This document shows, piece after piece, positions 661-27,534 of a stretch of DNA of 47,464 nt (the first letter of the stretch is position 1; the number at the start of each line of letters is the position of its first letter). A program made the translations under genes and the position numbers. The notes beneath the pieces were generated by a model that saw nothing but the letters and a program-made list of their open reading frames with translations, was not told the origin of the DNA and did no database searches. The stretch is from a virus: positions 1 through 47,464 of IMG/VR virus record IMGVR_UViG_3300024261_000051; one strand, written 5' to 3'.

Positions 661-678
661 TACGTTTTGGAGATTGTT

Positions 679-3454: not shown

Positions 3455-3481
3455 CAGCGACCTAACGGAGTTCCCGTTCTG

Positions 3482-3613
3482 ATGTCCCTCTCAAACAGTG
3501 AATACCGGGATCTTCATAGGCTAATCCCCGATGCCTGGTTCAAGGATGTCCTTCTGAGACTCAGAGACTATCAAGAACAGATTGCCCACAACAAAAGAGG
3601 CCACCAGCAATGA
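3482..3613 (+). CDS. small helical protein (43 aa)
   Basis: ATG at 3482 overlaps a TGA in the frame of the shifted coiled-coil gene; its own TGA (3611-3613) overlaps the ATG of the DHH gene. The product, MSLSNSEYRDLHRLIPDAWF followed by KDVLLRLRDYQEQ, is amphipathic and helical. Coupling on both sides makes it a likely real gene. Function unknown. Confidence 0.55.
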   Translation: MSLSNSEYRDLHRLIPDAWFKDVLLRLRDYQEQIAHNKRGHQQ

Positions 3614-4437
3614 AAATACTTTGTATCTATCATGCCAACTGTGCGGATGGTATGGCTGCAGCAACGATTGTACGCATGCATTACGGATCTGGTCTGGTTG
3701 AGTTCTATCAGGGGAGCTATGGCTCCCCTCCCCCAGACGTTACTGGTAGACAGGTGCTGATGGTGGACTTCTCCTACAAACGTGAGGTACTGGTCCAGAT
3801 GGCAGCCAAGGCTCAAAACATTCTGATCCTGGACCACCACAAGACAGTGCAGGAGAACCTGACTAATCTACCCGAGAACGTGGTTGTGAACTTCAACATG
3901 GACAAGAGCGGCTGCGGGATCACTTGGGAGACCTTCTTTGGCTGGGAGAAGCCACCGATGATGGTTCGTATGATTGAAGATCGTGACTTGTGGAGATTCA
4001 ACCTTCGTGGGAGCCGTGAGCTGCACGCCTTCCTCTCCTCTCAACCCTATCGCTTCGATGACTGGCAGTCCATTATGGAGGACGACTGCATTAATGAGAT
4101 GGAGAGAATGATCCAAATGGGTGGAGCTATTCTGGATGCCATGATGACCAATATCAATGAGCTGATCCGCATTGGTGAGCATGAGGTTGTGATTAATGAG
4201 GTGAAGGTTCCTGCGCTGAACTGTCCTCCGATGTGGTTTTCTGAGGCGGGTGCTATCTTGTCGAAAGGGAGTCCGTTTGCTGCCCTTTACTTTGAGGATG
4301 GTGAGACCCGTAAGTGGGGTTTACGCTCGAATGCAGAGGGGTTGGATGTAGGTAAGATTGCGGAGTCTCATGGAGGCGGTGGTCACCGTCATGCGGCGGG
4401 TTTTATTGAGCCACGCTTGAGTGGTGTTGGCCAATAG
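3610..4437 (+). CDS. DHH/DHHA1 family phosphoesterase
   Basis: A 275-residue protein with the DHH motifs in order: HANCADG (residues 8-14), MVDFS (D53), LDHHK (DHH 75-77), EDRDLW (about residue 124), and the DHHA1 substrate-binding loop GGGGHRHAAGF (about 255-265). The family comprises metal-dependent (Mn/Mg) phosphodiesterases: RecJ exonuclease, oligoribonucleases (NrnA) and cyclic di-nucleotide or pAp phosphatases. At 275 residues it is close to the short members, and shorter than RecJ. In a phage it may degrade nanoRNA or host DNA, or destroy a cyclic-nucleotide defence signal; the last is inference. It is the last gene of the early operon, and a terminator follows. Confidence 0.85.
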   Translation: MKILCIYHANCADGMAAATIVRMHYGSGLVEFYQGSYGSPPPDVTGRQVLMVDFSYKREVLVQMAAKAQNILILDHHKTVQENLTNLPENVVVNFNMDKSGCGITWETFFGWEKPPMMVRMIEDRDLWRFNLRGSRELHAFLSSQPYRFDDWQSIMEDDCINEMERMIQMGGAILDAMMTNINELIRIGEHEVVINEVKVPALNCPPMWFSEAGAILSKGSPFAALYFEDGETRKWGLRSNAEGLDVGKIAESHGGGGHRHAAGFIEPRLSGVGQ

Positions 4438-4774: not shown

Positions 4775-5836
4775 ATGGCTAAAGTAGAGCAAACATCCAC
4801 TGGTAAGTGGCAGGCAATCGTCCAGAAAACCGACCCATACACAAAGGAGTTGATACGTAAAACTCAGTCATTCCTAACCAAGGCAGCCGCCGAGAAATGG
4901 GCTACAGATATAGAGTACCACATAGAAAGAGGTGACCTTAAAAAGACCATCCATGCAGCCAAGACCGTCACCGATGCACTTGACCGGTATGAGAGAAAAG
5001 TAACCCTCAATAAAGCCTGTGCAAAATGGGAGAGTAAAAAGATCAAGTATCTCAAAACCCTCCCCATCGCAAAGATCAAACTCAGCGAACTGACAAGGGA
5101 AGATGTTTCAGATTGGAAAGACTTCAGACTGAAATCCATCCAGGGTGAGAGCCTGCTTAGAGAGTGGACCGTACTCAACTCCGTACTCAACTACGTCATT
5201 GAAGACCTCGGGTGGTTCGAAAAAAACCCCATGAGATCTGTACGCAAACCCCCCAAGGGTGACCCCAGAGATATCGTCTTCCTCGACAACGATCTCGCAG
5301 TCGCTCGGCACGTCAGTGGATACCATGAAGACGAACCACCAGAAAAGGTGATGCCAAGAGTCTGTGCCGCCCTGCTGTTCGGAGTAGAGACCGCTATCCG
5401 CTCCACAGAAATGACAAAGATCACCTGGGATATGGTACTCCCAGATCGAATCCGCCTACCCAAAGAGATCACCAAGGAGAAAAAGAAGAGAACAGTCCCC
5501 CTCTCCCCCAGAGCGCAACACCTAGTTCAACAGTTCTACTCCGTCAAAAAGGATAACACCATGTTGCGCCTGACCCCCGATCAGATCTCCTCCAACTTCA
5601 GGAATATCCGCATCAAAGGCAATCTCAATGGACTGACATTCAGAGACTCCAGAGCCACCGCCCTCACCAGACTCTCAAAACTCTACGAGAACCCAATGGA
5701 GCTGGCGAAGATCAGCGGCCACCGCAAACTATCCACTCTATTAAATACCTACTACCGCCCCGATGAGGACGACCTGGTCTCCAAACTATCCCAGTTCCAA
5801 CCCTCAGAAGTTGGCAAATCGACCTTCTTCCCGTAA
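4775..5836 (+). CDS. int: tyrosine recombinase / phage integrase
   Basis: A 353-residue protein. An N-terminal arm-binding part (TGKWQAIVQKTDPYTKELIR) is followed by a core-binding helical domain (about 70-160) and a catalytic domain. Catalytic residues visible are Arg209 (ETAIRSTE), a beta-hairpin Lys near KKKRTVPLS, Arg293 in RDSRAT (the usual HxxR histidine is replaced by Arg290), His316 in SGHRKL and the nucleophile Tyr326 or Tyr327 (NTYYRPD). The HxxR substitution is a modest deviation; neighbouring residues are conserved. It would catalyse integration and excision at attP/attB. The start has CGGAG 7-11 bases upstream. Its end overlaps the giant late gene, which converges from the other strand, by 33 bases. 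Confidence 0.93.
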   Translation: MAKVEQTSTGKWQAIVQKTDPYTKELIRKTQSFLTKAAAEKWATDIEYHIERGDLKKTIHAAKTVTDALDRYERKVTLNKACAKWESKKIKYLKTLPIAKIKLSELTREDVSDWKDFRLKSIQGESLLREWTVLNSVLNYVIEDLGWFEKNPMRSVRKPPKGDPRDIVFLDNDLAVARHVSGYHEDEPPEKVMPRVCAALLFGVETAIRSTEMTKITWDMVLPDRIRLPKEITKEKKKRTVPLSPRAQHLVQQFYSVKKDNTMLRLTPDQISSNFRNIRIKGNLNGLTFRDSRATALTRLSKLYENPMELAKISGHRKLSTLLNTYYRPDEDDLVSKLSQFQPSEVGKSTFFP

Positions 5837-8800
5837 GTAGTCATAGCTCTTAGGGAGATAGGTGCCAGCATGTGTCTGCTGCGCACTTCTCTTCCGGCTT
5901 CTCATAGAGCGCTTAATCGTGTCACCGGTAATCCGTATCCTCTTCTGAGGATGGCGAAGATTGAATGACTCAATACTCTGCATGATATTGCCACGCTCCT
6001 CCACCGACTCCGCACGGATCCAGCGATCAACCAGCCGTGTCTTCGCCTCCTGGATTGCATCCTTCTGCAGGGTAAGGAAGTTACGATAAGCGTAAGCCTC
6101 GCCATGCCTGCGGGGACTGAAACCTACCGCCTGCATGAACAGCTCCATAAAGGTAATATCCTCCTCCAGCACTCGCTCACCCTTCCAGGTTGTAATATCC
6201 TCCTGCGTAAACCGGATCGACTTGGAGATATCCTTGAACGCCTTCGGTATCATCATCTCAATACCTCTCCAGGTTTTGCCCTCCGCAACTTTCGCAGCTC
6301 CCGTGATCACATTCTCAAGGTTGGCAGCCAGTGGCCCCATCAACCCAGCGATCCGGTTACGGGCCATATCCCGCCCCTCAGCATGCTCATCCACCCGAGG
6401 CATCCACATACCCAGAAGATCGATACTCATCCGGGAGGAGATATCAATGGAGGGGAAGATCGCACGCGCTGGACCGTGCGCAATAACCTCTGCCCAATCC
6501 TTACCGGTCGCGTCCGTCAACTTGTTACGGTACCAAGCCTCCGCATCAAACTCCTCATCCTCCTCACCCATGCCATTGGCAAGCATCTCAACAACTCCAG
6601 TCACCATGCCAGAGATAGGCATTCCCAGGGTACCCACAAACATACCGTAGCCACCCATAATCCCCATCAGTGACTTCCGGGCCTGGCTACGGGTCTCTGC
6701 ATCCACGTTACTGGTGAATGAGTTACGCAACAGCCGCCCCATCATCCAAGACATATTGAGTGAATACTGCTTGAACATGGTGATCACACGCAACCAGTTC
6801 CCCTGCATGGCACGCGCCCTGTTTGAAGAGGAGTAGTCGAAGTGACTGTCATAGATCATGGTCCGTGCCGCATCAATCGCCTCATCATGAGAGAGTGGAT
6901 TCTTCTTATCACTCCGAGCCAAACGATAGGCAGCCAGCCCCGTTACCTGACGGTTGAATACCTCCGCATAGTGGAACGGTGCCCCCGCAAACTTCATGGC
7001 ATCATGTGCCTTCCGTGAGAGTGAACCACCTTTGGCCATTGCCAGATGGTCCTCATGTCCTGCACCCTGAAGCTCAATCACATTGGTGGTACTGATCGCA
7101 CCCATATCCTCCAACATTTGGATCGCCTTCAGCTCGTCACCCTTTAGACCATGCTTGATGTCACGGAACAGCTCAGGGTCATACTTACCATTTGGCCCCC
7201 AATCTTTCATGGCTCGCATCACCTCCTTGCCGGCCCGGCCAAAACCGTACTTGGCCCCCATCAATGGGTAGGCAATCAGAGGGGTCTGCGAAATATTAAC
7301 CAGTGCGGAGGCAATCGAGGGTCCGATGCTCCAGGTAAATCCTGCAGCTCCAGCCACCCCAGAGATCGGACTAAAGGATGCGTTTTGCATATTCTCATGG
7401 CGCTTATCGATCTCACCGATCAGATCATAGGCGTAGCGCTTATCCCCCGCGGGGAGACTCTTCGCCTGCTTCTTCGCCTCAGCAATATCACGGGTCAGCT
7501 TATAGTCATACTGAACATTGGCGATATTGTTATTGATCCGACCCGCTGTCAGAGCAAAAGCCCGGATCGCATCATCCGAATACCCCTTGACCCCTTTACG
7601 GTGCATGAAGTTTTTATGATAGGAGGAGTCCGGCATAGAGGAGAGCATGACCGTATTCATCTGGTCCAGCAGATCCTGCTTCAAGTGCTGCTCATCAGCG
7701 CTCGTATCAGGCAAGCTGTCGCGCAACAGATCAATCATCTTGCTCCCCACCCCAGAATAGGTGGCGTGCTTAAAGAAGTTCTGCTCCCCCTTCTTGATCT
7801 CAATATCTCCAGCAGAGTAACCCTGCTTAATGAAATCCTCTACCGCCACACGAACCTCTTCATCCGACTCAAAGGCGGCAACAATGCGCTCCTGATCCCC
7901 CTTCTCTTTAACGATCACGATATGATCCCCAAAGCGTGCCAATGGGAAGTATGGCCCCTTCCTTTTAATTACCTTGAACTGATTATTCAGCTCGCCCAGC
8001 AACCCCTTTAACGTCTTCTCATCTTCAACCGTATCGGTCAATCGAGCCGTCAGGGAATCCTGCAGGTCCACCATCTTGTTGGTGAAATTTTGGCGCAACT
8101 CTTTATAGAGGTCATGCCATCCAGGGAGCGCATCATACTCAGCACGAATCCGCTGATACTCAATACGTCTCTCAGAGTTAGGCTTGAGTGAGTCGTCCAG
8201 AAGCTCAAAGGCTTTGGCGGGGTCAATCTGGTAAAGCGTAGAGGTATGGATGATGTCCGCAAACCTAGTGGATGCCTCACCCTCTTTCTTGGCCTTAGCC
8301 ACCCAGCGCTTATAGAGCCGGTCATCCTTATCCGAGCGCTTCACCCGTACCGCCTCTTTATCCTGTGACCGCTTATGGTAGTCCCAGATAGAATCCAGGT
8401 GAGTCTCCTTAGCAAGCTCAGCCACCATGCGCCGAGTGAGCATCCCCAAGGAGGTGGCTCTCGCATTGATACCCTTCCCTCTAAGGAACTTACCCACCTT
8501 CCACTTTGAAGCTGGACGCCCCATGACCTGTTCCATCATCTGGTTAACAGCGCCCTGAGTCATTGGCTTACCATCCGGCATCGCTATCGAGAAACTGATA
8601 TCGTCACTCTCCTCACGCTCTGCCTTCTTGAACAGATCGGCCCTTGTAATATTCTCCACGCCCGGAGTCGTTGACTCTGGTTTGCGGCTGAATTTTGCCT
8701 CTATCTCTACGTCTGCATCATTGAAAATTACATAGTTGTAATCGCCGTCGCCTTTGCCGCGCGAGCTACCATCAAGGTATTTGATGCCTCGGATGCCTGC

Positions 8801-11800
8801 GGCGAGCAGGGCGAGGGAGGCGGCGCGGTCGGAGCGGTTGGACACGGCGATGTCGCGGTAGAGGCCCTCTCCGGTCATCTCACGCGGCTTCCCCGCGAAG
8901 GGGGAGCGTCCGGTTTCGTCCTGGTACGCCTGGCCCACCATCGACTTTTGGCCGTCGCTCAGAACGGAAGCGTCGAAGCCACCCTCAAACAGCGATGGGA
9001 ACTCTTTGGTGGCCCACGCCTGCGCCTCTGGCGTCCATGCCCCATGACCTTCAAGCCCCTCCAGCGCCTTCCTAACCTTCTCGCCCTGCTCACTCAGCGG
9101 CTTATCCCACAACAGGTACTCATCCTCTGATGGTTTGAGATCCACCTGGTAGAGTTTTCCTTTTGATTTGGATAGCTCCATCTCATCTAGGATTTGACCG
9201 ACAGTACGTTTTACCCCTCCCTGCACCCACAGACTGTAATAATCTCTAGCCTCTTCGAGATTGCCTCCGTGCTCCTGGATTGCTTGAACAGCAGTTGCGG
9301 CGGCAGCTTCAGAGTAGCCGGAATCGACAATGGTTGGGATCAGCTCACGATAATCCCCAGTCGTGAACTCTTTACCTCCAAACTTAAACACTCCTGGATC
9401 ATACTCGCTCAGTTGGTTGCGATAAAACTCCCCAACCTCCTTATTCCCAGCGAAGTACATCCCCCAGCCATACGCCTGAGCACCCACGCCTGTTCCGATC
9501 TTACCAGTAGTGAAGCCTTCAAGATCGTGTGGCGACCCGTGCCAAGCCGTCATAAACGCCGGACGATCACCAAGAGCTACGGAACCGCCCTCAATAGCCG
9601 CCTGGCGGACTCGTTTCAACAGGTACTGCAAGTCACTGTCCGTAAGCTCTGCGCTCTTCTTGTACCCCTTAATCCTTAGCCAGTCGCGGAACTGTCCCCA
9701 TAGCGCCTTAACTGCATTCTTAAATCTGACTGGCAGCGTCTCATACGCCTTTTTCCCAGACAATTGAGCAATCAACTCGTCCACTATGAATGCACGATAG
9801 TCCTCTACGGTAGTTTCTCCACGATCAAGCCGACCTTTACCTGTCTCAATGTACGAATCAAGATCGATATCGTACCTTTTAGCTACGTCCCGAACGCCTT
9901 TAGACCCCAGCATCAAGAACAGCTTGTTGTAAGATTGCTTGATATTATTGTCGAACAGTAGCCGACCAAACTTATGGCCAGCCGCCTCATGCAGTAGCGT
10001 CTCCTCAATATGGAGGTCTCCACTCATCTTGTCTGCAACCAGGTAGACCTTTCCTTCATGGAATACGCCCTCAACAGAGCCGGTCGCCCCATCTTCTTCA
10101 GCCTGTCTACGGATATCAGAAGGCAGATCTGCTTCAGTTGCTACAACCTCATACTCAGTCTTCTTACCCAGTCTGCGGTAAATAATATCTTCTGTTTTCG
10201 ACTCTACCGCATCAACGCTCATGCCTCCAGACTTGCCAGAATCAGATCGCAAAGAGTACATCGCTATACCTTTGCGCGGAGAGGTTGCAGCCTTGTGGGC
10301 CTGCATATCCAGATTGATCATCTCCTCATTGATCTTCATCTTGTTACCCGGGAAAGTTCCAGAACCATTGACGGCCCGGCGTGCCCCACGCAGCAAGTAG
10401 GCTACGTCTGTGACTGACATACTACGAGCCAGGCTCTTGAAGCCATGGTTACGCAGCCAGTTACGAATTGCACCCAGAATCTCCAGCGCCTTCTGCTTAA
10501 TCTTCCCAGTCTCATACCCAGCAACGTGCGCCAAGAACTCATCTGCAATCAGCCCCTGCCTACGCTCACGAGTCTCTCCACTGTACAGCTTCATGTACTC
10601 AGACATCTCACGAGTGATCCCGTACTTTCCGGCCAACTCATTGATCCCCTTGTACCCACCCAGCATAACGAACAGCTTATTCAGCCCCTGATTGATATCA
10701 GTCGTGTTGAGCAGCATACGGATACCGTGGTGCCCATAAGTCTCATGGAAGATCACCTGCTCTGCTTCGCGCCGTGAAGTGATCTGCTGACGATTCAGGT
10801 ATACTTTCCCGTTATGGATAACCCCTTTAATATCGGCTATGTCTTGGCCGCGCTTCTGATAGTGATTCTTTATGTAGCCTGGAAGCTCTTCGGCACTAGA
10901 GAGCGGGATGAGTTCTACGTTTCCACCCGACCATTTGACTGGGAGGTTACTGATGACAGCATCGAGAACAGCGGCAGAGATCGGAGTCTTTGACTGACTC
11001 TTGGATACCGAGAACGCCACATCACCCGTATCACCCTTAAAGGCATCATTGACTCTATGGGTTACTAGGTAATCTCGCTGAGCACCCTTTAATTCTTCCA
11101 GTCTGAGTTGATGCGGATCAATTGCCGCAACTACGGCACTAGGCTGCCTCTTAACAAGAGTGGTCTTATGTGCAGCGATCTCTTCCTCGGTTGGAAGTTC
11201 AGCCTCATTCTCAAAAGACCCCTTCGATATAGCGGTTGTGATCTTACGCTTGTCGGCTGAGGATAACTCAATCGCCTCGCCATTGCCCCGCACGCTCAGA
11301 CGCACGCCATTCATCATCCCAGACAATGCCTCTATGTTCTCCTCAGTAACGCCCCTGATCAGGAACTTGCCACCTGAAGAGTAGAGAGTCGCACCAAGAT
11401 CATCCAGCTTATCATCCATACGGCTATCAAAGTAGATTCTGCCTCCCGATTCCATCTCGCGTGATTCTGTCACGGTAAAGATGAGATCACCCGAGCGCAC
11501 CTTATGCTTGCCAGTAATTATCACGTCATCTGTAGAGAGAATCTCACGAACCCGCCCCACTTTATTCTCGTGCAACTCGGGGATGACCTTCTGATTGCCG
11601 TAGCGATAGATGACTGCGCCCAGCTTTTTCAGAGCCGCGTCACGATCATCTCCAAACGTAACTCTCATAGACTCCTTCTTACCTTGGTCACCCAGAACAC
11701 CAACCTGACTCTTCTCGTCAGCCAGCTTGCGCCCAACATGGTCCCAGAAGTATTCAGTACCTCGGTCCCCAATCCTCTTCAGTCCGGCCTCAACTTCACT

Positions 11801-14800
11801 CCAGCTATGACCGTCCATATATTGATCGAGCTTGCCAGACTGGAAGTCACGATTAAACTCAGTAAAGGTTCTATGCTTGTGCTCAAGAACCCCCTGCTTA
11901 ATCGCCGCCCGTAAAGCGTTAACTCCATCAGCAACCTCACTAAAGCGGAGCACCTCATCAAGCCCCATTCCGAAGGCTGGGTTAGGGATTAGCTCGCTCT
12001 CACCATTCGCGTGATCAGCAATGTCATACAGATTAATCAGCTTCTCTGTATTGATATAGTCTCCACTCAGAAACTCCGTATAAAGAGCTGAGTAGACTCC
12101 GTTATCGGTTTTGATGTCACTGAAGATACTGCTGTTCTTAACCCCTGATCCTGCGTTCTCACCATAGAAGAAACGGTTATCCAGGAAGATCTCTCCATCA
12201 ATGGAACGGGTAGGTACCGTGGTCCAGATAATGTTCTTGGGGCCGCTGCGGCGTAGGAAGAACAGCATATCACCATCCTTCTTCTGCATGACGAACGACA
12301 TAGCCTTGTCTGTATCGTCAGCGGATTCAGACATCTTCTCTCCACGCTCTTCGCGCCCAAGAGTAAAGCGGTCAAGCGCTTCCTGTCTGTTGCTTCTGGC
12401 GTGCCGAGTAACTCCACCACCCTGACGGCGATACCTTTTAATAATCTCGATCAAACTTCTGGGGGCGGCCATCAGCTTCTGAGGATCTTGGATCAACTCC
12501 AGCACCGCTGCCTTCAGCTTGTTGATGCTCTTATACTGTTCGCTCCATATAAGCGCATCTATCTCATCTGTAATCTGTAGGTCTGCAACAACCTGAGTCT
12601 TAATAATGTTATTGATCCGAGCCTTTGATGCCTTGTCCGGCGTAAAGGTTTTAGTCTTCCTGCTATTAAGAGTCACATCCACAAGATGATCATTCGACAG
12701 ATACTGGGCCAGATCCTCAGATGCCTCTACTCTGGACTCAAAGGAGTCAAGGGTAATTCCATCCAGGGTGACGTTCCACAAACCGTCCTGCCCTTTATTG
12801 ATACCCACAACAGAGTCACCGAACAGTGCCCGACGATCACCTGCTTTACCCAGCGCCTCATAAACAGCCCGGACCTCTTCGGAGAGTGAATCAATACTGA
12901 ATCCTTGGGAAGCCTCTTCAACTACCCCTTCAGTAGACTCCACCGCTACCTCAGCGCCCCCCTGCTCAGCCTGATACAGAGACTCATCCCAAACATCAGC
13001 ATCATTCAGCGCACCAAAGAATGCATTGCGTGCGGCCTCATGCAGCTGAGCAGGGATCGGAACCTCTTGAGCTGCCAGCAGCGCCTGGAACCGGTCCTCC
13101 AGTTCAGCATCATTGAGTGCCATAAATGCCGGGTGTGTTGCTGCCTGCTCCCCCATCATGGAGTAGCTGATAATCACGTCCTCCATCAGGGCTTCAAGCT
13201 GCTCCTCCTCGCTGGACTCCGAGATCTCAACTGACTCCTGAGCTGGTTGCTCTATTTCGACTGGCTCTGCTTCTGAGATCTCATCTGCTGGAGCTGCTTG
13301 ACTCTCAGCTTGGCTTCCTCTGGAGTGTTGTACCTGCCCAGCGTTCGTCCCTTCTTGGACACTACTGCCCACTGGTTGTCCTGCGTTTTGACTATCATTT
13401 ATATCTCCTATGGTTTCTGCAACAGCAACAGACGTAGCACCTCTTGTCAGTACGCTACGGGCTGCGGTATCGATATCACTATGCTGATCAATCTCTGAAT
13501 AGCCGCCCTCTTCATTCATTCCAAAGACAGAGAACCCGTTCCCGTTGTCTTCAATATAAAACTCAGGTGCGAACATATCAGTGTTTACCCACTCCACCTG
13601 AAGATCACCGTACAGCATATCTCCGGCAGGACGTAGCGCATGACTGAACGCCACGCTGTCACCCATAATGTCGTCATCCAAATCATCCAGGAAATCAACT
13701 TCATTCTGCTGGAACGCTATATTCTCTGGGTACTGCTTCACCAAGTTCTCGAACAGATTAGCCTCAACATGATCAGCTTCCTGCTGTGCGGCTGCAACAC
13801 CAAAGGCGTCAGCCATAGATGTGTTGGTAGCCTCGCCGAAGATGCGGCCATCAAAAGTATCTTCCTGCTCTACTTCTACAGCAACCGGTGTATTCGCTAC
13901 AGCTGCCGCTTCAATATTCTGACTATGCTGAGCCTCAACAGCATCAGGTAGCGTGCCACCCTGCGCCCTTACAGTCTGGAACAGATCGAGCAAACTTTCG
14001 GCCTGAGTGGCTTTAACTGAAGCCTGATCAATCTCCTCCTGAGTCTGCGCGTTATTCATCACATCTACCTGTGCAGATATGAAGGATTGAAGCATTGCGA
14101 TTCTCTGAGATAACGGATCAACCGCCACCTCCTCAGTAGGCTGTACCTGCTCTGATGGTGTAACACCATTCCGCATATAGGTGGGCGTATCCAAGTTAGG
14201 CTGTTGCTTACTTTCTACAGGAACAGAATCTGGAGCCTGAGCTGGAGTCAATATCCCGTTCTGCTGACGCGGAGCCTGAATAGCAACCGCTGCCTGCTCA
14301 ATAGCAACCGCTGCCTGCTCAATAGCAACCGCTGCCTGCTCGTATGTATCATGGACTGTAACCAGCTTGCCTGAAGGGTTCTGAACAAAGAACTTACCCT
14401 TATGCTCAATGATATTGAAGTCAGACTTCTCAACTCCCTCCACGGCATCCTCAATGCTGAGGCGCTGCGCCAACCCGTCTCGCTCCTGACCCAGAAGCGT
14501 TACCTCATTATCCAGTGCCGCAGCCTGTGTCGCAGTCTTCTCTCTCTGATCACGAGCGACATGCGACTCTTTGAGCGCCTTCTCTTCAAGTGCAGAGAAA
14601 GACTTCTTAGTGCCAGATAATGCCGACAGCTCAGCAAGCTCCGACTGCAAAGCAATCATGTCGTTGATGGGCTGGTTAATCTGGTCCTTCTCCAGCGGTG
14701 ACATTGCCGAAGCGAGAACATCCTTTGCGCCCTCTTGCGCCTTAGCAATTCGTGTCTTCAGCAGACTCTGGGCAGAGCCGATATTGTCAGTACCAATATC

Positions 14801-16237
14801 ATGATCTTCCAGCGCACTCGATACAGAGGTGATCCGCTCGCGCAGAGCAGTAGCACTCGCCTCCCTCTTGCTCTGAATCTGAAGAAGCTCATCATTCTCA
14901 GATCTTCTCTTATCGATATCAGCACTACGGACATCCAGATCATCTAATGCCTTCTTTATCCCCGGACGGATATGTGAGCGATCACCCGTATCAATATCCG
15001 CTTCAGGGTCTGCCCCAAATACAGAATTTACCGCACTGCCTGGAACCGACAAAGCACCACCCGCAACACTACCACTCACTACGCCAGTCATTGCCGCAGC
15101 ATTGGTGCCCTGCTCTTCAGGAAGGCCCAAAGCAATATTGGTAGCACGCTTACCCTCGTGCCCCTGAATACCCTCTTCCGTGGCCTCAAGACCTGTAGCT
15201 GCTGTCGTATTGCCAAGGAACGACTTCCCAAGTTTACCGGTGACCGCTTTGCCCAATAGAGGCATAGCCACGCCACTGGTGACAAAGGCAGTAGCAAACA
15301 TCTCATCGAACGCCTGCCCCTCAAGACGCTTAATCACATTGCTGCGTGCAATCTTTATCCGGGTCGGGGTGTCGAGAGAATCATCCGTATTGTTGTGGTA
15401 CTCATTAGAGAATAGTCTGGCAACCTTTGGATTGGAATCGGCAGACTTATTGTTCCACTGGCTATCAGTGTACCCGCGCAGTATATCTCCAACTTCCTGC
15501 GCCTGAGAACCAGCCTCCATCATACCAACAACGGTACCAAAACCAGCTGCACTACCCCCCGCATCCGCAGCCGTATCGAATGCACCCTTCTTGCCGAGCT
15601 TGTACTTACCGAGCTTGTACTTATTCAGTACCGCATCCGCCGCATCTTTGATCGGCATTCCACCTTTAGCAAGATCCTTTGCCTCACTGCTAAAGCGCTT
15701 AACAAGGAAACTACCACCCTTCTTTATCACCTTCTTTACTGCATACCCAGCCGGACCGCCACCCACTAACCCAGGGACAGTTGATCCTATGGAGTGGATT
15801 GCTGTTGCGTAAAAATTAGACAGGCTTGCGTCCCGGTTAACCTCCCAATCATCTTCGCCAACCTGATTGATAAGAGGTACCGACAACGCATCGGCTGTCG
15901 TTTTATTCATGTCACTCCAGACACTCTCTTTTGCAGCACCAGCGAACTTGTTAATTGTTTCGCCGACCCCAAAATCAGGGAGAAAGTCAAACTGATCAAG
16001 CCCCTTGCCCAGCCCCTCAATAGCACCAAGGGCACCATGCATAATGAGCTTAGACTCTTGGATATCATTAGGATCTTCAGCAGACGCATCCATGCCCCGC
16101 CCCATGCCAAACGACATCTCGTCACTCTTTACAATGTCTGGCGCGGACTCTCTTGCTGCGCGTAGTTGCACCAACTCATCTTTACGCGCCTGCCGTCTGG
16201 CAAGATAATCTGAACGCTGCTGATCTATATATGACAT
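5804..16237 (-). CDS. giant polyvalent virion protein (two zincin-like domains, ART-like domain, LPD-type C-terminus)
   Basis: A 3477-residue uninterrupted frame, last gene of the late operon, placed like the internal/ejection proteins of short-tailed phages. Visible regions: Gly/Ala-rich hydrophobic N-terminus (to about 420); coiled coil (about 430-630) with three copies of AVAIEQA; long acidic Gln/Glu-rich linker (about 650-1130). Two related zincin-like metallopeptidase domains follow, with HETYGHH at 1831-1837 and HEAAGH at 2083-2088, each preceded by GKVYL and followed by a similar helical part. An ADP-ribosyltransferase-like domain spans about 2231-2516 (AWHGSPHDLEGF, GAQAYGWGMYFA, DYNYVIFNDADVEIE). 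The C-terminal helical region (about 3080-3390: MFKQYSLNMSWMMGR) resembles the LPD38-type domain of large polyvalent proteins. Such proteins are thought to enter the cell with phage DNA and act on host targets. N4 virion RNA polymerase has similar length, but its motifs are absent. Confidence 0.85.
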   Translation of the reverse strand: MSYIDQQRSDYLARRQARKDELVQLRAARESAPDIVKSDEMSFGMGRGMDASAEDPNDIQESKLIMHGALGAIEGLGKGLDQFDFLPDFGVGETINKFAGAAKESVWSDMNKTTADALSVPLINQVGEDDWEVNRDASLSNFYATAIHSIGSTVPGLVGGGPAGYAVKKVIKKGGSFLVKRFSSEAKDLAKGGMPIKDAADAVLNKYKLGKYKLGKKGAFDTAADAGGSAAGFGTVVGMMEAGSQAQEVGDILRGYTDSQWNNKSADSNPKVARLFSNEYHNNTDDSLDTPTRIKIARSNVIKRLEGQAFDEMFATAFVTSGVAMPLLGKAVTGKLGKSFLGNTTAATGLEATEEGIQGHEGKRATNIALGLPEEQGTNAAAMTGVVSGSVAGGALSVPGSAVNSVFGADPEADIDTGDRSHIRPGIKKALDDLDVRSADIDKRRSENDELLQIQSKREASATALRERITSVSSALEDHDIGTDNIGSAQSLLKTRIAKAQEGAKDVLASAMSPLEKDQINQPINDMIALQSELAELSALSGTKKSFSALEEKALKESHVARDQREKTATQAAALDNEVTLLGQERDGLAQRLSIEDAVEGVEKSDFNIIEHKGKFFVQNPSGKLVTVHDTYEQAAVAIEQAAVAIEQAAVAIQAPRQQNGILTPAQAPDSVPVESKQQPNLDTPTYMRNGVTPSEQVQPTEEVAVDPLSQRIAMLQSFISAQVDVMNNAQTQEEIDQASVKATQAESLLDLFQTVRAQGGTLPDAVEAQHSQNIEAAAVANTPVAVEVEQEDTFDGRIFGEATNTSMADAFGVAAAQQEADHVEANLFENLVKQYPENIAFQQNEVDFLDDLDDDIMGDSVAFSHALRPAGDMLYGDLQVEWVNTDMFAPEFYIEDNGNGFSVFGMNEEGGYSEIDQHSDIDTAARSVLTRGATSVAVAETIGDINDSQNAGQPVGSSVQEGTNAGQVQHSRGSQAESQAAPADEISEAEPVEIEQPAQESVEISESSEEEQLEALMEDVIISYSMMGEQAATHPAFMALNDAELEDRFQALLAAQEVPIPAQLHEAARNAFFGALNDADVWDESLYQAEQGGAEVAVESTEGVVEEASQGFSIDSLSEEVRAVYEALGKAGDRRALFGDSVVGINKGQDGLWNVTLDGITLDSFESRVEASEDLAQYLSNDHLVDVTLNSRKTKTFTPDKASKARINNIIKTQVVADLQITDEIDALIWSEQYKSINKLKAAVLELIQDPQKLMAAPRSLIEIIKRYRRQGGGVTRHARSNRQEALDRFTLGREERGEKMSESADDTDKAMSFVMQKKDGDMLFFLRRSGPKNIIWTTVPTRSIDGEIFLDNRFFYGENAGSGVKNSSIFSDIKTDNGVYSALYTEFLSGDYINTEKLINLYDIADHANGESELIPNPAFGMGLDEVLRFSEVADGVNALRAAIKQGVLEHKHRTFTEFNRDFQSGKLDQYMDGHSWSEVEAGLKRIGDRGTEYFWDHVGRKLADEKSQVGVLGDQGKKESMRVTFGDDRDAALKKLGAVIYRYGNQKVIPELHENKVGRVREILSTDDVIITGKHKVRSGDLIFTVTESREMESGGRIYFDSRMDDKLDDLGATLYSSGGKFLIRGVTEENIEALSGMMNGVRLSVRGNGEAIELSSADKRKITTAISKGSFENEAELPTEEEIAAHKTTLVKRQPSAVVAAIDPHQLRLEELKGAQRDYLVTHRVNDAFKGDTGDVAFSVSKSQSKTPISAAVLDAVISNLPVKWSGGNVELIPLSSAEELPGYIKNHYQKRGQDIADIKGVIHNGKVYLNRQQITSRREAEQVIFHETYGHHGIRMLLNTTDINQGLNKLFVMLGGYKGINELAGKYGITREMSEYMKLYSGETRERRQGLIADEFLAHVAGYETGKIKQKALEILGAIRNWLRNHGFKSLARSMSVTDVAYLLRGARRAVNGSGTFPGNKMKINEEMINLDMQAHKAATSPRKGIAMYSLRSDSGKSGGMSVDAVESKTEDIIYRRLGKKTEYEVVATEADLPSDIRRQAEEDGATGSVEGVFHEGKVYLVADKMSGDLHIEETLLHEAAGHKFGRLLFDNNIKQSYNKLFLMLGSKGVRDVAKRYDIDLDSYIETGKGRLDRGETTVEDYRAFIVDELIAQLSGKKAYETLPVRFKNAVKALWGQFRDWLRIKGYKKSAELTDSDLQYLLKRVRQAAIEGGSVALGDRPAFMTAWHGSPHDLEGFTTGKIGTGVGAQAYGWGMYFAGNKEVGEFYRNQLSEYDPGVFKFGGKEFTTGDYRELIPTIVDSGYSEAAAATAVQAIQEHGGNLEEARDYYSLWVQGGVKRTVGQILDEMELSKSKGKLYQVDLKPSEDEYLLWDKPLSEQGEKVRKALEGLEGHGAWTPEAQAWATKEFPSLFEGGFDASVLSDGQKSMVGQAYQDETGRSPFAGKPREMTGEGLYRDIAVSNRSDRAASLALLAAGIRGIKYLDGSSRGKGDGDYNYVIFNDADVEIEAKFSRKPESTTPGVENITRADLFKKAEREESDDISFSIAMPDGKPMTQGAVNQMMEQVMGRPASKWKVGKFLRGKGINARATSLGMLTRRMVAELAKETHLDSIWDYHKRSQDKEAVRVKRSDKDDRLYKRWVAKAKKEGEASTRFADIIHTSTLYQIDPAKAFELLDDSLKPNSERRIEYQRIRAEYDALPGWHDLYKELRQNFTNKMVDLQDSLTARLTDTVEDEKTLKGLLGELNNQFKVIKRKGPYFPLARFGDHIVIVKEKGDQERIVAAFESDEEVRVAVEDFIKQGYSAGDIEIKKGEQNFFKHATYSGVGSKMIDLLRDSLPDTSADEQHLKQDLLDQMNTVMLSSMPDSSYHKNFMHRKGVKGYSDDAIRAFALTAGRINNNIANVQYDYKLTRDIAEAKKQAKSLPAGDKRYAYDLIGEIDKRHENMQNASFSPISGVAGAAGFTWSIGPSIASALVNISQTPLIAYPLMGAKYGFGRAGKEVMRAMKDWGPNGKYDPELFRDIKHGLKGDELKAIQMLEDMGAISTTNVIELQGAGHEDHLAMAKGGSLSRKAHDAMKFAGAPFHYAEVFNRQVTGLAAYRLARSDKKNPLSHDEAIDAARTMIYDSHFDYSSSNRARAMQGNWLRVITMFKQYSLNMSWMMGRLLRNSFTSNVDAETRSQARKSLMGIMGGYGMFVGTLGMPISGMVTGVVEMLANGMGEEDEEFDAEAWYRNKLTDATGKDWAEVIAHGPARAIFPSIDISSRMSIDLLGMWMPRVDEHAEGRDMARNRIAGLMGPLAANLENVITGAAKVAEGKTWRGIEMMIPKAFKDISKSIRFTQEDITTWKGERVLEEDITFMELFMQAVGFSPRRHGEAYAYRNFLTLQKDAIQEAKTRLVDRWIRAESVEERGNIMQSIESFNLRHPQKRIRITGDTIKRSMRSRKRSAQQTHAGTYLPKSYDYLREEGRFANF
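14280..14342 (-). repeat. three tandem 21-bp repeats within the giant gene
   Basis: Three 21-base units (ATAGCAACCGCTGCCTGCTC plus one base on the + strand), nearly identical, encode EQAAVAI repeated in the coiled-coil/linker part at about residues 632-653. Near identity at DNA level points to recent slippage. Confidence 0.85.
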
Positions 16238-16262: not shown

Positions 16263-17912
16263 TTAATGATTCATCCATGTAGGTAATTTTGCGCCCGGCC
16301 TTGGTTTCAGTAGATCTGATACCTCACTACGGGGTTGTTGGCGAGTAGGGGGGCGAGTAGGGGGGCGACGTCGAGTAGGGGGGCGAGTAGGGGGGCGACG
16401 TCTAGGCCGAAGAAAATCAAAAGAACGTCCAGATGGTGAGTCTTGAGAATCCACGACAGTTGGCCTCCGTCCATGCCCGATTCCAGCGCTGACTCTATTA
16501 GCTCCAGGAGCGGCAGCTGGTGCGCCAGAATCTGCTGCCCGTGGAGAATAAACCGCAGGAGGAGCAGTGCCCGGCGCAGAGCGAGAAGCAGCAGGGGGCA
16601 CGCCTAATCCGCTACCAGCCTCCGCACTTGCGGCCTGAGCAGCAGGTGGCATCATGTTAATGATCGGCTTAGATGGGATCGTGTGAGGAGCTTTACTCAT
16701 GCGGACATCATCTTCCCGCTGATCAAAGATAATATTCAGCTCCGATATGCGAGCATCTAAAATGCGCTCAATCTCAGACACGTTTTTGATGCCACCCTCC
16801 CCCGCAAGCGTGGTGTAGTAGCTAATCAAATCATTGATTGACTTCACTCTCTCCTTATTGATTGCGTCCACCTGACTAGCAATAGTCTTGTCACTTGCTA
16901 CCGTACTCTTCCACGTCAGATCCTTGAGACGGTTTTGAGCGCGGATACCGTTATCCATCATCAACGCCTCAGCGGACTGGTAATCCATGATCGAAGCCAA
17001 TGTGTAGGACCGAACACCATCACCCTTATCCGCTGACCTTAATTCAGTAATGGGGCCAGTCTTCCGCATCTTGGTCTTAGGGTCCGTATAGCTAACAGCA
17101 AAGGTAAGATTATCCAGAGTCTCTCCATCTGTACCCGGAACAGGAATGATATCCACAATCTGAACATCATCCCCTACCCCCTTCTGAAGCTGCTTGTACT
17201 GCAGCACGTTTAAGGCTTTTATAGCGCCCCCTTTTATGCGCTCCATCTCCTTCTCTCGAAGCTCAGGAGGAAGATTCGTTTCTCCATTGCTAAGCATTCC
17301 AAATGCCTGGAATGTGCTCATCATATTTCGCTTGGCCTCTTGGCGTGCGGGATCAATAATGTCCGCAAACTTCCCCTTAGGCAATCCGATGCCTTGCCCC
17401 AGCTTGTCGTACTCAGCCGCAATCCGCACCTGATCCTCTAGGGACGTGGCATTACTGAATGCATACAAGAAGTCAGTTGCGAGTTTTCCAGCTTGCTCCC
17501 GGCGTAGCTTCTGTATATTTACAGCGTGTTCATCCCTACCCTTCGCTGTCTCAAAAACAGACTGCGCAGTGAGAGCATTGTTGTACTCAGTTAAAGCGTT
17601 CGCGCTTGCAGCCTCAGAAGACGGAACTCCTGCTGCTGTTCTTGCGTTTGTGAAGGCAGCCTGAGCTATGTCGTTCGGTGAGAAGTGCGGCTTACTGGTA
17701 TTGTAGGCCGACTCAGCAATGATGGCGGCATTCCTCTGCTCATTACTTGCAGCCTCCCGCTCCATACTTGCAGCCTCCCGCTCCATCAGTGCCATCTTCC
17801 GCTTCTCAAGCGCCATATCACTCCGGTCCTTCCTGCGATCTCTGGCGAAGTTCATACCGAAAGCAAATGAATCCATAGGATCACTGCCTGAATTTAGTCT
17901 TGTTCCACCCAT
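16263..17912 (-). CDS. putative internal virion protein with PPTR repeat tail
   Basis: A 549-residue protein. ATG at 17912 is preferred over an upstream in-frame start at 17951 because it overlaps the preceding stop (TAATG) and has GGAG eight bases upstream. N-terminal residues 20-60 are a charged coiled coil (ALEKRKMALMEREAASMERE). The middle is helical without a recognised fold. The C-terminus is Ala/Pro-rich and disordered, then carries an Arg/Pro/Thr repeat (RRRPPTRPPT twice) before DLLKPRPGAKLPTWMNH. Position between a small Gly/Ala-rich protein and the giant polyvalent gene is that of an internal-core or ejection protein. The basic disordered tail could bind DNA or RNA. No enzyme motif seen. 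Confidence 0.7.
   Translation of the reverse strand: MGGTRLNSGSDPMDSFAFGMNFARDRRKDRSDMALEKRKMALMEREAASMEREAASNEQRNAAIIAESAYNTSKPHFSPNDIAQAAFTNARTAAGVPSSEAASANALTEYNNALTAQSVFETAKGRDEHAVNIQKLRREQAGKLATDFLYAFSNATSLEDQVRIAAEYDKLGQGIGLPKGKFADIIDPARQEAKRNMMSTFQAFGMLSNGETNLPPELREKEMERIKGGAIKALNVLQYKQLQKGVGDDVQIVDIIPVPGTDGETLDNLTFAVSYTDPKTKMRKTGPITELRSADKGDGVRSYTLASIMDYQSAEALMMDNGIRAQNRLKDLTWKSTVASDKTIASQVDAINKERVKSINDLISYYTTLAGEGGIKNVSEIERILDARISELNIIFDQREDDVRMSKAPHTIPSKPIINMMPPAAQAASAEAGSGLGVPPAASRSAPGTAPPAVYSPRAADSGAPAAAPGANRVSAGIGHGRRPTVVDSQDSPSGRSFDFLRPRRRPPTRPPTRRRPPTRPPTRQQPRSEVSDLLKPRPGAKLPTWMNH
16342..16401 (-). repeat. two tandem 30-bp G-run repeats encoding PPTR motifs
   Basis: A 30-base unit, built from CGAGTAGGGGGG twice plus CGACGT on the + strand, occurs twice in perfect tandem. 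On the coding strand it gives the C-rich codons for RRRPPTRPPT repeated. The four G-runs on the + strand could form a G-quadruplex. Confidence 0.85.
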
Positions 17913-18421
17913 TAGAATAACTCCGCTACTAGAAATGCGCCGGCCACCCATGGCATTGCGGCACTGATTGCTGTACCTGCCGCACCAGCCGCGCCACCAG
18001 CCAGTGAACCTGCCTCCGAAACTAACGCCGCATTAGAGGCTTCCATTGCAGCTGCCTCAGCAACCCCTGCATCAATAGCAGCATCGTATGCAAGATCAGC
18101 TGCTACCTGAGCACCGCTACTTACAGCGCTTGCGCTACCTTCCGTTATTCCAAGCCCCATCGGATTTCCCAGCGCGTCACCAACGGCGTTTATGCCTCTG
18201 GTTATGCCTCTGGAAAGAATCTCCCCCCCTCCTTTCTCATCAAGGTAATCAACGCCCATGCCAATACCCTTCGTCATTACAGCTTGCTTTGACTCCTGCT
18301 CAGCTTGGTCAATCTCTTTCTGAAGCATGTTCCGCTTATGATTCTCTGCCGCCCCAACACCCATGCCATACATGGCCTCATCAAGTGTTTTGCGCCCTGA
18401 GTTTAGTAATCCACCAGCCAT
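17912..18421 (-). CDS. Gly/Ala-rich internal virion protein
   Basis: A 169-residue protein. N-terminal MAGGLLNSGRKTLDEAMYGM is followed by a charged helix (ENHKRNMLQKEIDQAEQESK), then a Gly/Ala-rich part ending in a hydrophobic stretch (AAGTAISAAMPWVAGAFLVAEL) that could insert in a membrane. Small Gly/Ala-rich hydrophobic proteins next to ejection proteins are common in short-tailed phages and probably help form the channel for DNA entry. It overlaps its neighbours by one base on each side, so all are translationally coupled. No named family recognised. Confidence 0.65.
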   Translation of the reverse strand: MAGGLLNSGRKTLDEAMYGMGVGAAENHKRNMLQKEIDQAEQESKQAVMTKGIGMGVDYLDEKGGGEILSRGITRGINAVGDALGNPMGLGITEGSASAVSSGAQVAADLAYDAAIDAGVAEAAAMEASNAALVSEAGSLAGGAAGAAGTAISAAMPWVAGAFLVAELF

Positions 18422-26400: not shown

Positions 26401-27534
26401 ACCGCCGGAACTCTTACAAAACCCCACCCCAGCAGCAGCTTCAGACGCTATGCTTGCCTGTACTGAACGAGACTCTGCAAGGATTGCGTCCGACTCACTG
26501 GACGCAGCAGTCTGAGCAGAAGTTGCAGCTCCAACGGCAGAGGTCGCAGCAGTAGCAGCTTGCGCAGCGGCAGCGGCAGCAGAAGTTGATGAACTATCAG
26601 CAGATGCGGCAGAGGCAGCAGCCTGATCAGATGCAGCAGTTGCAGACCCGGAGGCAGCAGATGCCGAGTTGGCAGAGTTATCAGCGCTCGCCATTGCGCC
26701 TACCTTCCAAATATTGGTACCGTTATCCAGTAAACAGGCTACTTGATCAGTAAATGCAGGGAGGCGTGTACCTCCTGAGTTTGTACAGTACCCTTGACCA
26801 GCAGCAGCTTCAGCAGCAATCTGAGAGATAAGAGCGTCTGCAGACTCAAGCGCAGCAGTGGCAGCACTTGCAGCCGCTTGCGAGGCAGATACGGCAGCCG
26901 CAGTAGTGTCACCATACGTCTCATCCAGCCCATTGATTGCTGTGTCAATATTGTCCAGCTCGGTTATCAGAGCCTGGGCCAACTGCGAACGATCAAGCGC
27001 CCCATTTAAAACAGCAAGCACATGATCTGGACCCATGCTGGTGTGGGCCTGAATACCATCAACGGCATTAAATGCACCAATCAACCCCTCACTACTAACC
27101 GCCTTAACCCAATAGAAGTAGTCAGAATCCCAGACGATATTGCTGTCAACATACATAGTATGCGTGGAGCTACCGATCAAAACAGCATTCGCCGTATTGT
27201 TGTCAGCACTTCTGAATACCTGCACCACAGAGTGATTGCCATACACAGGGAATTCCCATGTAATCATGACGGCACTCAGGCTCACATGCGTCTCCAGACC
27301 ATTTACTACAGGCGGCTTTACCCCGGTTGAATTGGTAACAGGTGCCCCGGTTGGATTCCCCCCTCCACCAGGGACATACTTTGATCCGCCGGCAACTGAG
27401 CGACCACTATTAACTCCCTGCACAGAAGTAGTAGATGACCCACCATAGTTGCCAGAGCCAAGCGACTCCCTCAACTGATTCAGGAACGTGGTCAATCCAT
27501 GATCTAGCCCCGGTGGAACATTAGGCAAACTCAT
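23485..27534 (-). CDS. Ala/Ser-rich tail fibre with FN3 domain, Cys-pair modules and lambda J-like C-terminus
   Basis: A 1349-residue fibre. The N-terminus is Gly/Ser-rich, then an FN3-like domain (about 75-165: PPVVNGLETHVSLSAVMITW ... YFYWVKAVSSEGLIGAF). From about 210 to 1060 runs a low-complexity Ala/Ser/Thr coiled coil like the side-tail-fibre repeats of lambda Stf. It is interrupted five times by a roughly 30-residue module with the pattern GYC...FTD..xCLxD...N.W (two cysteines, end Trp). The C-terminal third (QYSVKMNANGQAAGFGLAVH, SEFAIVADKLMLVDPG) matches the DUF1983-type end of lambda tail protein J. It probably binds host receptor. Overlaps the upstream gene by four bases. Confidence 0.82.
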   Translation of the reverse strand: MSLPNVPPGLDHGLTTFLNQLRESLGSGNYGGSSTTSVQGVNSGRSVAGGSKYVPGGGGNPTGAPVTNSTGVKPPVVNGLETHVSLSAVMITWEFPVYGNHSVVQVFRSADNNTANAVLIGSSTHTMYVDSNIVWDSDYFYWVKAVSSEGLIGAFNAVDGIQAHTSMGPDHVLAVLNGALDRSQLAQALITELDNIDTAINGLDETYGDTTAAAVSASQAAASAATAALESADALISQIAAEAAAGQGYCTNSGGTRLPAFTDQVACLLDNGTNIWKVGAMASADNSANSASAASGSATAASDQAAASAASADSSSTSAAAAAAQAATAATSAVGAATSAQTAASSESDAILAESRSVQASIASEAAAGVGFCKSSGGDSLVAFTDSVSCLADDPTNVWADGSEVSAGNAATSASAASTSASQSAAYETGSASYAAAAETSKTASETAAANAGVSETNAASSATSASGSASNASSSETAAAASKTNAGDSAVAASTSESNAATSATNAGTSATSAEAHKVSAETAATNAGTSATAAATSASNASASETAAGSSASAADTSATTATTQASNAGASATQAASSATSAGVSESIASTSESNAATSETNAGGSATAASNSASAAATSAGDAGTSASAAETHKIVAQLAARGGYCTLFSDGSVSPTLLTEVNCLADNTSNTWTPSAEDSAAASAVSASSASSSETLAGQHASAAATAKTEAETAQGAASASATQAASSATSASGSASNASASESNAATSETHAGGSATAASSSASAAATSAGDAGTSASAAETHKIVAQLAARGGYCTLFSDGSVSPTLLTEVNCLADNTSNTWTPSAEDSAAASAVSASSASSSETLAGQHASAAATAKAEAETAQGAASTSATQAASSATSASGSASNASASESNAASSKDSAGEVAAAAASSASTASTKATEASNSATAAAASETKAELLATAGYCRNIATQNLESSYTIEASCIVDPGREWIPGVAASTSAAATHADSAETAENNALTSAGAASTSATSAGTSESNALTYKNSASASATTAEGHATAAAADFTSLTARLDNAGGAGVTVEQSMTANADSIDGLEGQYSVKMNANGQAAGFGLAVHSGDALGSGSEFAIVADKLMLVDPGCWFSALITQQNTAEQWEWETVGIKHFSPHLVKSAAYTFEADLLCGPESRYIFKGFVPQTYPFQLSIHLTGTDSYGTAKTTVFDIPYGSCTRDPGNYDHYTISHLVSPSSTDVTTISTIELQVQGDFDRSFEKIYSLSAHIGGKFGVPFLIQSGVTYINSAMIQDASIVSAMIESLTADKLVVTGGLSALSSDIGTMTSGKIQNGAGTFVIDLTNGFISITA
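24824..25735 (-). repeat. tandem 456-bp duplication in the fibre gene
   Basis: The segments 24824-25279 and 25280-25735 are nearly identical at DNA level, with a partial third start after 25735. Each encodes 152 residues: one stretch of Ala/Ser coiled coil plus one Cys-pair module (GYCTLFSDGSVSPTLLTEVN and onward). In-frame length and few differences show a recent tandem duplication that lengthens the fibre. Confidence 0.9.

What the first reader, a model, noticed from the sequence alone, without database searches (positions are those of the whole stretch)
5804..16237. 3477-residue polyvalent protein with duplicated zincin-like domain
The protein has two similar metallopeptidase-like units (HETYGHH at about 1831 and HEAAGH at about 2083) with matching upstream strands (GKVYL) and downstream helices, i.e. 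an internal duplication. It also carries an ART-like domain and an LPD-type C-terminus. Proteins of this sort probably enter the host with the DNA. The two active sites, on different motif variants, may have different targets.
Basis: partly seen in the sequence, partly recalled or inferred. Interest (0 to 1): 0.7.

Follow-up and report, generated by a model that had tools for sequence, protein, structure and literature searches.

The report
Giant phage protein, tandem zincin domains
A temperate phage encodes a very large, probably injected protein with two related zinc-protease domains side by side; such proteins are already known, but here the joints between its parts carry a short repeated motif and can be swapped between phages, which hints that the protein may cut itself into pieces.

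Summary
ORF 5804-16237 (3477 aa) has HETYGH at 1831 and HEAAGH at 2083, each 21 residues after GKVYL; the two units are 33% identical over 202 aa (E 6e-26). Both keep the full HExxxH...E set, so they are not different motif variants. Copy 1 models as a zincin (best Z 7.8); copy 2 gives only weak structural support. An HYD-type ART, LPD39 and a PLxRFG domain (535 bits) follow. This is a polyvalent protein, a known kind (Iyer 2017), in a temperate podovirus-like genome. Tandem HExxxH zincins occur in 14 of 80 related loci. A recent internal duplication is disfavoured: copy 2 pairs with another phage's single zincin (support 98/94), although AU tests are equivocal (p 0.166, 0.048). Two results go beyond the finding. 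(1) A short FS[R/L] motif sits at the edges of these zincins in unrelated giants (42% upstream, 49% downstream, background 12%); a hold-out of 24 gave 29% (background 9.5%). (2) A 4.1-kb contig shares 141 and 86 bp of identical DNA with the gene but has different modules between and after them. My leading, unproven mechanism is self-processing at these junctions, alongside cassette exchange.

The parts
5804..16237 (-). giant polyvalent protein, 3477 aa
   Evidence: C-terminus NF032893 535 bits, PHROG 30335 E 2.5e-119 and 10089 E 8.7e-101
10343..10930 (-). zincin copy 1 (residues about 1770-1965)
   Evidence: HExxxH + E1900 invariant in 29 aligned sequences; AF2 core pLDDT over 90; VIA best rows zincins, Z 7.8 to 5.3
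10730..10747 (-). HETYGH active-site motif, residues 1831-1836
9587..10168 (-). zincin copy 2 (residues about 2024-2217)
   Evidence: 33% identical to copy 1 over 202 aa, E 6e-26; HExxxH + E2154; AF2 model mean pLDDT 75.6, structure comparison weak
9974..9991 (-). HEAAGH active-site motif, residues 2083-2088
8705..9556 (-). HYD-type ADP-ribosyltransferase-like domain (residues about 2228-2511)
   Evidence: PF18760 E 4.3e-4; conserved H2233, Y2261, D2507 in alignment A4 (assignment to H-Y-D is mine)
11003..11014 (-). junction motif FSVS, F at 1742, 89 aa before the HE of copy 1
   Evidence: at the edge of a low-pLDDT end of the model
10247..10258 (-). junction motif YSLR, Y at 1994, 89 aa before the HE of copy 2
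   Evidence: pLDDT under 50 in the copy 1 model, low-confidence strand in the copy 2 model
8629..8714 (-). linker DVEIEAKFSRKPESTTPGVENITRADLF; 86 bp identical in L201 between other modules
9547..9687 (-). 141 bp at the end of zincin copy 2, identical at the start of L201; the two sequences part exactly at the junction with the ART
8582..8593 (-). junction motif FSIA, F at 2549, before LPD39
7946..8485 (-). LPD39 domain (residues 2585-2764)
   Evidence: PF18858 70.3 bits
5849..7957 (-). PLxRFG domain (residues 2761-3463)
   Evidence: NF032893 535 bits, E 2.9e-160
16263..17951 (-). 562-aa gene directly upstream of the giant; same place as the 513-566 aa genes before giants in other phages
   Evidence: no sequence match to those tested
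27531..29606 (-). internal virion protein (phrog_511)
   Evidence: E 2.5e-142; 31% to BcepIL02 gp63
4775..5836 (+). integrase, convergent with the giant gene and overlapping its 3' end by 33 bp
   Evidence: phrog_1 E 3.3e-42

Best explanation
The gene encodes a polyvalent protein of a temperate podovirus-like phage, made late, packaged in the head and ejected with the DNA (delivery inferred by analogy). It is a chain of exchangeable cassettes: N-terminal unknown part, zincin 1, zincin 2, ART, LPD39, PLxRFG C-terminus. Both zincins keep the metal-binding and catalytic residues and are probably active metallopeptidases (inferred). Their most likely job, as Iyer et al. proposed for the class, is to process the polypeptide itself in the virion or after entry. 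I add the inference that cuts fall in the flexible junctions marked by a short [F/Y]-S-[R/L/V/I] motif before zincin 1, before zincin 2, after the ART and before LPD39, so that the ART and the C-terminal part are freed as separate effectors. The second zincin came either from an old duplication or from capture of a cassette. Shown: domains, residues, motif enrichment, module exchange. Inferred: virion location, activity, cleavage and its sites. The confidence given is for the self-processing step; the identity as a polyvalent protein with two zincin homologs I hold at about 0.9.
For: Domains and residues. Zincin fold of copy 1: AF2 core over 90 pLDDT with HETYGH on helix 98-119 and E176 (residue 1900) on helix 166-183; VIA rows led by the lethal factor peptidase domain (Z 7.8, 163 aligned, 3.8 A), PPEP endopeptidases (Z about 6), MATCAP, IrrE/PprI. 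Both flanking motifs lie in or at the edge of low-pLDDT ends. Junction motif: FSR was the third most enriched 3-letter pattern in an unselected count over 65 non-redundant giants (79 seen, 22.6 expected); rate 0.43 per 1000 against 0.14 in 212 other ORFs of the same loci. FS lies 75-125 aa before the HE in 27 of 65 and 115-165 after in 32 of 65, background 12.4% (282 of 2276 windows); SF, LS, ES, KS, AS are not raised. Hold-out of 24: 7 and 7, background 9.5%, p 0.0058 each; FSR upstream 6 of 24, background 1.5%. Serine codons at these FS are mixed, 38 TCN and 29 AGY, so the motif is kept as protein, not as copied DNA. FS upstream is commoner with HExxxH (23 of 46) than HExxH zincins (4 of 19). 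Neighbours are head, portal, terminase and internal virion genes. The positionally equivalent giant of phage JC1 was found in purified virions, 51 unique peptides (PMC9144972, passages).
Against: No cleavage data for any protein of this group were found. N4 virion RNAP also holds such a domain and is packaged uncut (PMC5512222 passage). The flank intervals were chosen after I had seen the profile; the hold-out effect is smaller (29%), and FD upstream (10 of 24) and SF downstream (p 0.03) were raised there too. In a second set, ART-bearing giants with a loose zincin motif had FSR at background (0.15 per 1000) and those without it 0.17. Six of the 79 FSR lie inside a conserved HEW[WF]H domain. 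Copy 2's fold has no clear structural match (best Z 4.7 to non-zincins). BcepIL02's giant, of the same phage group as JC1's, matches this one only at E 0.006, so virion location is analogy.
Confidence: 0.45

Rival explanations
1. The two zincins are effectors that cut host proteins after injection, perhaps one target each; the junction motif only marks flexible linkers.
For: Iyer et al. list this as an option. The fold neighbours include proteases that act on other proteins. A zincin directly followed by an ART recurs: 5 of 6 hold-out zincins among ART-fetched loci (those loci were chosen by their ART).
Against: It does not account for the motif at the edges of zincins in otherwise unrelated giants, nor for zincins being placed before different C-terminal classes.
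Confidence: 0.3
2. The zincins and the motif serve packaging or passage through the portal (unfolding, chaperone binding, threading), without proteolysis being central.
For: The N4 RNAP region holding its MPTase is needed for encapsidation (PMC5512222 passage). P1 DarB is sorted to the head by its N-terminal 30 residues, so short linear motifs can steer packaging (PMC9024508 abstract and passages).
Against: All metal ligands and the catalytic Glu are invariant in 29 sequences, which a structural role would not need. The motif follows this zincin group and is not raised in ART giants at large.
Confidence: 0.15
3. The junction motif marks recombination joints: cassettes are swapped at linkers, and the motif is a by-product of swapping rather than a protein signal.
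For: L201 shares 141 bp and 86 bp of identical DNA with this gene while the modules between and after differ. FS[RKLVIM] is denser at the ends of local alignments between giants (1.7-2.9 per 1000 in the 20-aa bins next to starts and ends) than in control ORFs (0.57).
Against: Serine codons at the motif are of both classes (38 TCN, 29 AGY), so it is not one copied stretch of DNA. Both can be true: swapping at joints that are also kept for another reason.
Confidence: 0.2

Closest known systems
Polyvalent proteins of phages and conjugative elements (Iyer et al. 2017, PMC5512222; abstract, passages and two sections read)
   Same: Giant protein with MPTase, ART and LPD domains in a phage structural module; HEXXXH variants, one to five MPTases per protein, about 8% with more than one copy, and self-processing are all in that paper.
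   Different: The paper names no junction motif (terms linker and recognition motif: 0 hits; cleavage site: only a reference title).
PLxRFG domain giants (NCBIfam NF032893) of Pavtok, LASTA, POI1126, Skulduggery and others
   Same: Same C-terminal domain at 23-36% identity, zincin upstream, same place after virion genes.
   Different: The named relatives examined show one zincin motif before the PLxRFG domain, of HExxH or HExxxH type, and mostly longer proteins. None has the window's pair of same-subgroup zincins.
Bcep22/JC1-type DarB-like giants
   Same: Positionally equivalent, in a genome with a homologous internal virion protein; JC1's is in the virion.
   Different: BcepIL02's C-terminus belongs with the LPD38 class of L201, and the window protein has no methylase or helicase match.
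Zincin metallopeptidases with solved structures (lethal factor peptidase domain, PPEP, MATCAP, IrrE)
   Same: Fold of copy 1: three strands, active-site helix, Glu helix.
   Different: HEXXXH instead of HEXXH (the HEXXH of those enzymes is recalled); about 8-16% identity; substrate unknown.

Membership tests
Polyvalent protein (Iyer 2017) | Several domains of unlike activity in one long polypeptide | tested here: met
   two zincin units, ART-like domain, LPD39, PLxRFG domain
Polyvalent protein (Iyer 2017) | Encoded with phage structural genes | tested here: met
   terminase, portal, major head protein, internal virion protein, tail fibre on the same strand
Polyvalent protein (Iyer 2017) | Packaged and injected with the DNA | not testable with these tools
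   only analogy: JC1 gp69 in virions
Zincin-like MPTase, HEXXXH form | HExxxH on a helix plus a downstream Glu | tested here: met
   H, E, H and Glu invariant in 29 aligned sequences, both copies included; on helices in both models
Zincin-like MPTase, HEXXXH form | Zincin fold, copy 1 | tested here: met
   VIA: the top 41 rows are LF, PPEP, MATCAP and IrrE/PprI chains, Z 7.8-5.3; Z is under 8 and Foldseek's best E is 0.074
Zincin-like MPTase, HEXXXH form | Zincin fold, copy 2 | tested here: inconclusive
   VIA best Z 4.7 to DdmD, zincins at 4.2 and below; homology to copy 1 carries the claim
Zincin-like MPTase, HEXXXH form | Zinc binding and peptidase activity | not testable with these tools
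   needs an assay
ART-PolyVal (PF18760, HYD type) | Profile match over the curated cut-off | tested here: inconclusive
   16.2 bits, cut-off 31.2; the domain carries a long insert
ART-PolyVal (PF18760, HYD type) | H, Y and D active-site residues | tested here: met
   H2233, Y2261, D2507 invariant in four aligned ARTs; strand assignment mine
PLxRFG domain protein (NF032893) | Profile match over the curated cut-off | tested here: met
   535 bits, cut-off 100
P1 DarB-type antirestriction protein | Methyltransferase and helicase domains | tested here: not met
   no such Pfam match in any of eight segments, though PHROG 10089 that bears this label matches the C-terminus
N4-type virion RNA polymerase | T7-like RNAP module | tested here: not met
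   no Pfam RNAP match over cut-off; PF00623 at 20 bits, cut-off 25.3, is another polymerase family

The most novel reading that the evidence does not exclude
Giant ejected phage proteins of this group are true polyproteins: HEXXXH zincins embedded in them cut at a shared F/Y-S-[R/L] junction motif that also marks where effector cassettes are swapped between phages, so any cassette bearing the motif is released by the resident peptidase. The motif would then predict the cut sites, and thus the delivered effectors, in many such proteins.
Probability: 0.25. Interest if true: 0.75.

Novelty: new member of a known kind. Interest (0 to 1): 0.5.

Why it matters
Giant polyvalent proteins are thought to deliver many enzymes at once, but how one long chain becomes working parts is open. 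A junction motif tied to the embedded peptidases gives exact, testable cut sites. The exchange of modules between identical linkers shows how such phages may trade effectors.

Tried and rejected
Considered and rejected: (a) two different active-site variants: both are HExxGH. (b) A polymerase: PF00623 at residues 1630-1746 is under its cut-off (20 of 25.3 bits). (c) DarB by function: no methylase or helicase found. (d) FS as a general mark of all large polyvalent proteins: not raised in ART giants. (e) Recent intragenic duplication: disfavoured but not excluded.

Led nowhere: sequence search of solved structures with the whole protein (0 hits), with the zincin profile (best E 0.032, an unrelated title) and with the ART profile (0). 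Foldseek gave no match at E 0.001 for either zincin. Pfam has no model that names this zincin: of 29 members, one matched ART-PolyVal (flank) and one DUF6647; PHROGs gave mostly unknown families. DNA patterns from the two shared stretches had no match in viral contigs. Of 245 genomes of the MAG's phylum, only the MAG itself matched the window's zincin-ART region. The head and tail genes of the phage were not in that MAG. Text searches for the motif found nothing; subscription papers are not held, and Gill et al. 2011 could not be read.

Full report
What is there. The window is a 47,464-base IMG/VR virus record, with no tRNA. The frame 5804-16237 is open on the minus strand (the plus strand is full of stops) and reads 3477 aa. 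Going upstream on that strand are a 562-aa gene, small virion genes, a tail fibre, an internal virion protein (phrog_511, E 2.5e-142), the major head protein, a head-tail adaptor/portal and the large terminase, with a weak small-terminase match. An integrase lies on the plus strand, overlapping the giant's 3' end by 33 bp, so the phage is probably temperate. Named relatives place their giant in the same way, after a 513-566 aa gene.

Domains. Segment scans gave LPD39 at 2585-2764 (70.3 bits) and no Pfam match to the zincins or the ART; NF032893 PLxRFG at 2761-3463 (535 bits); a weak ART-PolyVal match. tblastn of residues 1751-2529 found four phage records, three through the ART and one, Methanosarcina virus MetMV, through zincin 2 and the start of the ART. 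The ART aligns at 32-45% with three phage proteins, with H2233, Y2261 and D2507 invariant.

The two zincins. HETYGH (1831) and HEAAGH (2083) stand 252 residues apart, as do the two GKVYL. BLASTP gives 33% over 202 aa, E 6e-26. Across 29 aligned sequences the columns H, E, H of HExxxH and a downstream Glu are invariant (E1900 in copy 1, E2154 in copy 2). AlphaFold2 on copy 1 (29 rows) gave mean pLDDT 73 with a core over 90 and low-confidence ends. The second-look alignment lists lethal factor (Z 7.8), PPEP proteases (about 6), MATCAP (5.7) and IrrE/PprI (5.3) first; all rows are under Z 8 and Foldseek alone found nothing significant. Copy 2 gave mean pLDDT 75.6 but its best rows are not zincins (Z 4.7) and zincins come at 4.2 and below. 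Its fold claim rests on homology to copy 1.

How common is a pair. A profile of the PLxRFG C-terminus matched 542 of 577 candidate stretches in IMG/VR, of which the best 80 were fetched. Two HExxxH motifs 150-320 residues apart occur in 14 of these 80, and in 6 of 65 non-redundant giants, the window included. In those related to L021 the second copy is of another subgroup: it matches copy 2 at about 32-39 bits only. In the sets I held, only the window had two members of the copy 1/copy 2 subgroup. Iyer et al. already report one to five MPTases per protein, so the pair itself is not new in kind.

Duplication or capture. Copy 1 scores 132 bits with L098 and 90 with copy 2; copy 2 scores 140 with L097 and 90 with copy 1. 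In a 36-row tree copy 2 groups with L097 at 98/94; the AU test does not reject a copy 1 + copy 2 pair (p 0.166). In an 18-row tree, built after the first was seen, the grouping is 96/95 and the AU p is 0.048. The L097 phage record shows no match to the window's internal virion protein (the record may be a fragment). I read this as leaning against a recent copy inside this gene, without closing the case.

Module exchange. A scan of genome contigs with copy 2 returned one locus, L201, a 4147-bp contig binned with a Neomarinimicrobiota MAG. Its first 141 bases equal window 9687-9547 and its bases 701-786 equal window 8714-8629; outside the second stretch identity drops at once to 20 of 60 and 14 of 60, and after the first the sequences differ at once. 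Between them L201 has a different module in place of the ART, and after the second a C-terminus of the LPD38 class (145.7 bits), akin to L098, L004 and L109. The contig name carries k141, so the 141-bp start is probably a branch in the assembly graph at the module joint; that is inference. The 86-bp stretch is shorter than that k, so it is unlikely to be an assembly joint in L201. A joint in the window's own assembly cannot be ruled out. The bin says little about the host.

The junction motif. Reading the joints by eye showed AFS, MYS, KFSR and SFS in the window, and FSR, FSL or FSV in L097, L098 and L102 (FSI in L101). I then counted patterns without choosing them: FSR ranked third among 3-letter patterns (79 seen, 22.6 expected), of which six are part of a conserved HEW[WF]H domain. 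Against 212 other ORFs from the same loci FSR is 0.43 per 1000 against 0.14, and FS[RKLVIM] 1.20 against 0.57. By distance from the zincin motif, FS[RKLVIM] peaks at -120 to -80 and +120 to +160. In intervals set after that view, FS occurs upstream in 27 of 65, downstream in 32 of 65 and on both sides in 17 of 65; background 282 of 2276 windows; the dipeptides SF, LS, ES, KS and AS are not raised. With the same intervals, a hold-out from another zincin clade (80 loci; 12 dropped as already in the first set, 44 as redundant, 24 left) gave 7 and 7 of 24 against 9.5%, p 0.0058 each, and FSR upstream 6 of 24 against 1.5%; FD upstream was also raised, and SF downstream slightly. A small hold-out from ART loci gave 4 and 5 of 6, but two of the downstream hits are the ART's own FS. 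Serine codon classes at the flanking FS are mixed (38 TCN, 29 AGY), so the letters are kept as protein. Results against: ART giants with a loose zincin motif show FSR at 0.15 per 1000, those without at 0.17, so the motif is not general.

Mechanism. Iyer et al. proposed that MPTases process polyvalent proteins before packaging, in the head, or after entry, or act on host proteins. For this protein I put self-processing first at 0.45: catalytic residues are intact in both copies, the motif sits in low-confidence joints on both sides of copy 1, and the same motif marks joints in unrelated giants of this zincin group. That thermolysin-like enzymes often cut before large hydrophobic residues is recalled, not tested. 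In the copy 2 model the MYSL segment is drawn as a strand at low confidence; I give this no weight. No experiment on cleavage in this group was found.

Virion location. JC1 gp69, a 4515-aa giant in the equivalent place, was detected in CsCl-purified virions with 51 unique peptides and 15.6% coverage (PMC9144972, passages). BcepIL02's giant, whose C-terminus is of the LPD38 class, aligns to the window giant only at E 0.006, so this supports the position, not this sequence.

Verdict. The finding is right about the anatomy, wrong about motif variants, and probably too quick about duplication. The protein is a new member of a known kind. The joint motif and the module swap are the parts worth following.

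Noticed in passing
L201:1-4147: Contig with two stretches identical to the window but different modules between and after them: module swap inside the giant gene, or two haplotypes.
   Followed up: yes
window 14276-14338: Residues about 634-654 repeat QAAVAIE nearly three times in a row, a short DNA repeat in the giant gene.
   Followed up: no
window 12698-14425: Three short stretches of the N-terminal part (about residues 605-635, 892-930, 1140-1180) look alike by eye and may be repeats of one small domain.
   Followed up: no
window 4775-5836: Integrase gene runs into the 3' end of the giant gene from the other strand with a 33-bp overlap; an attachment site may lie close by.
   Followed up: no
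window 631-1167 and 3610-4437: DNA methyltransferase-like gene (phrog_111, E 1.5e-20) and DHH phosphoesterase-like gene (phrog_4771, E 1.7e-86) on the plus strand.
   Followed up: no
L031, L047, L052, L060, L078, L107: Some PLxRFG giants carry a further HEW[WF]H domain with a conserved HA-DNYFSR-like stretch, upstream of the other zincin motif.
   Followed up: partly
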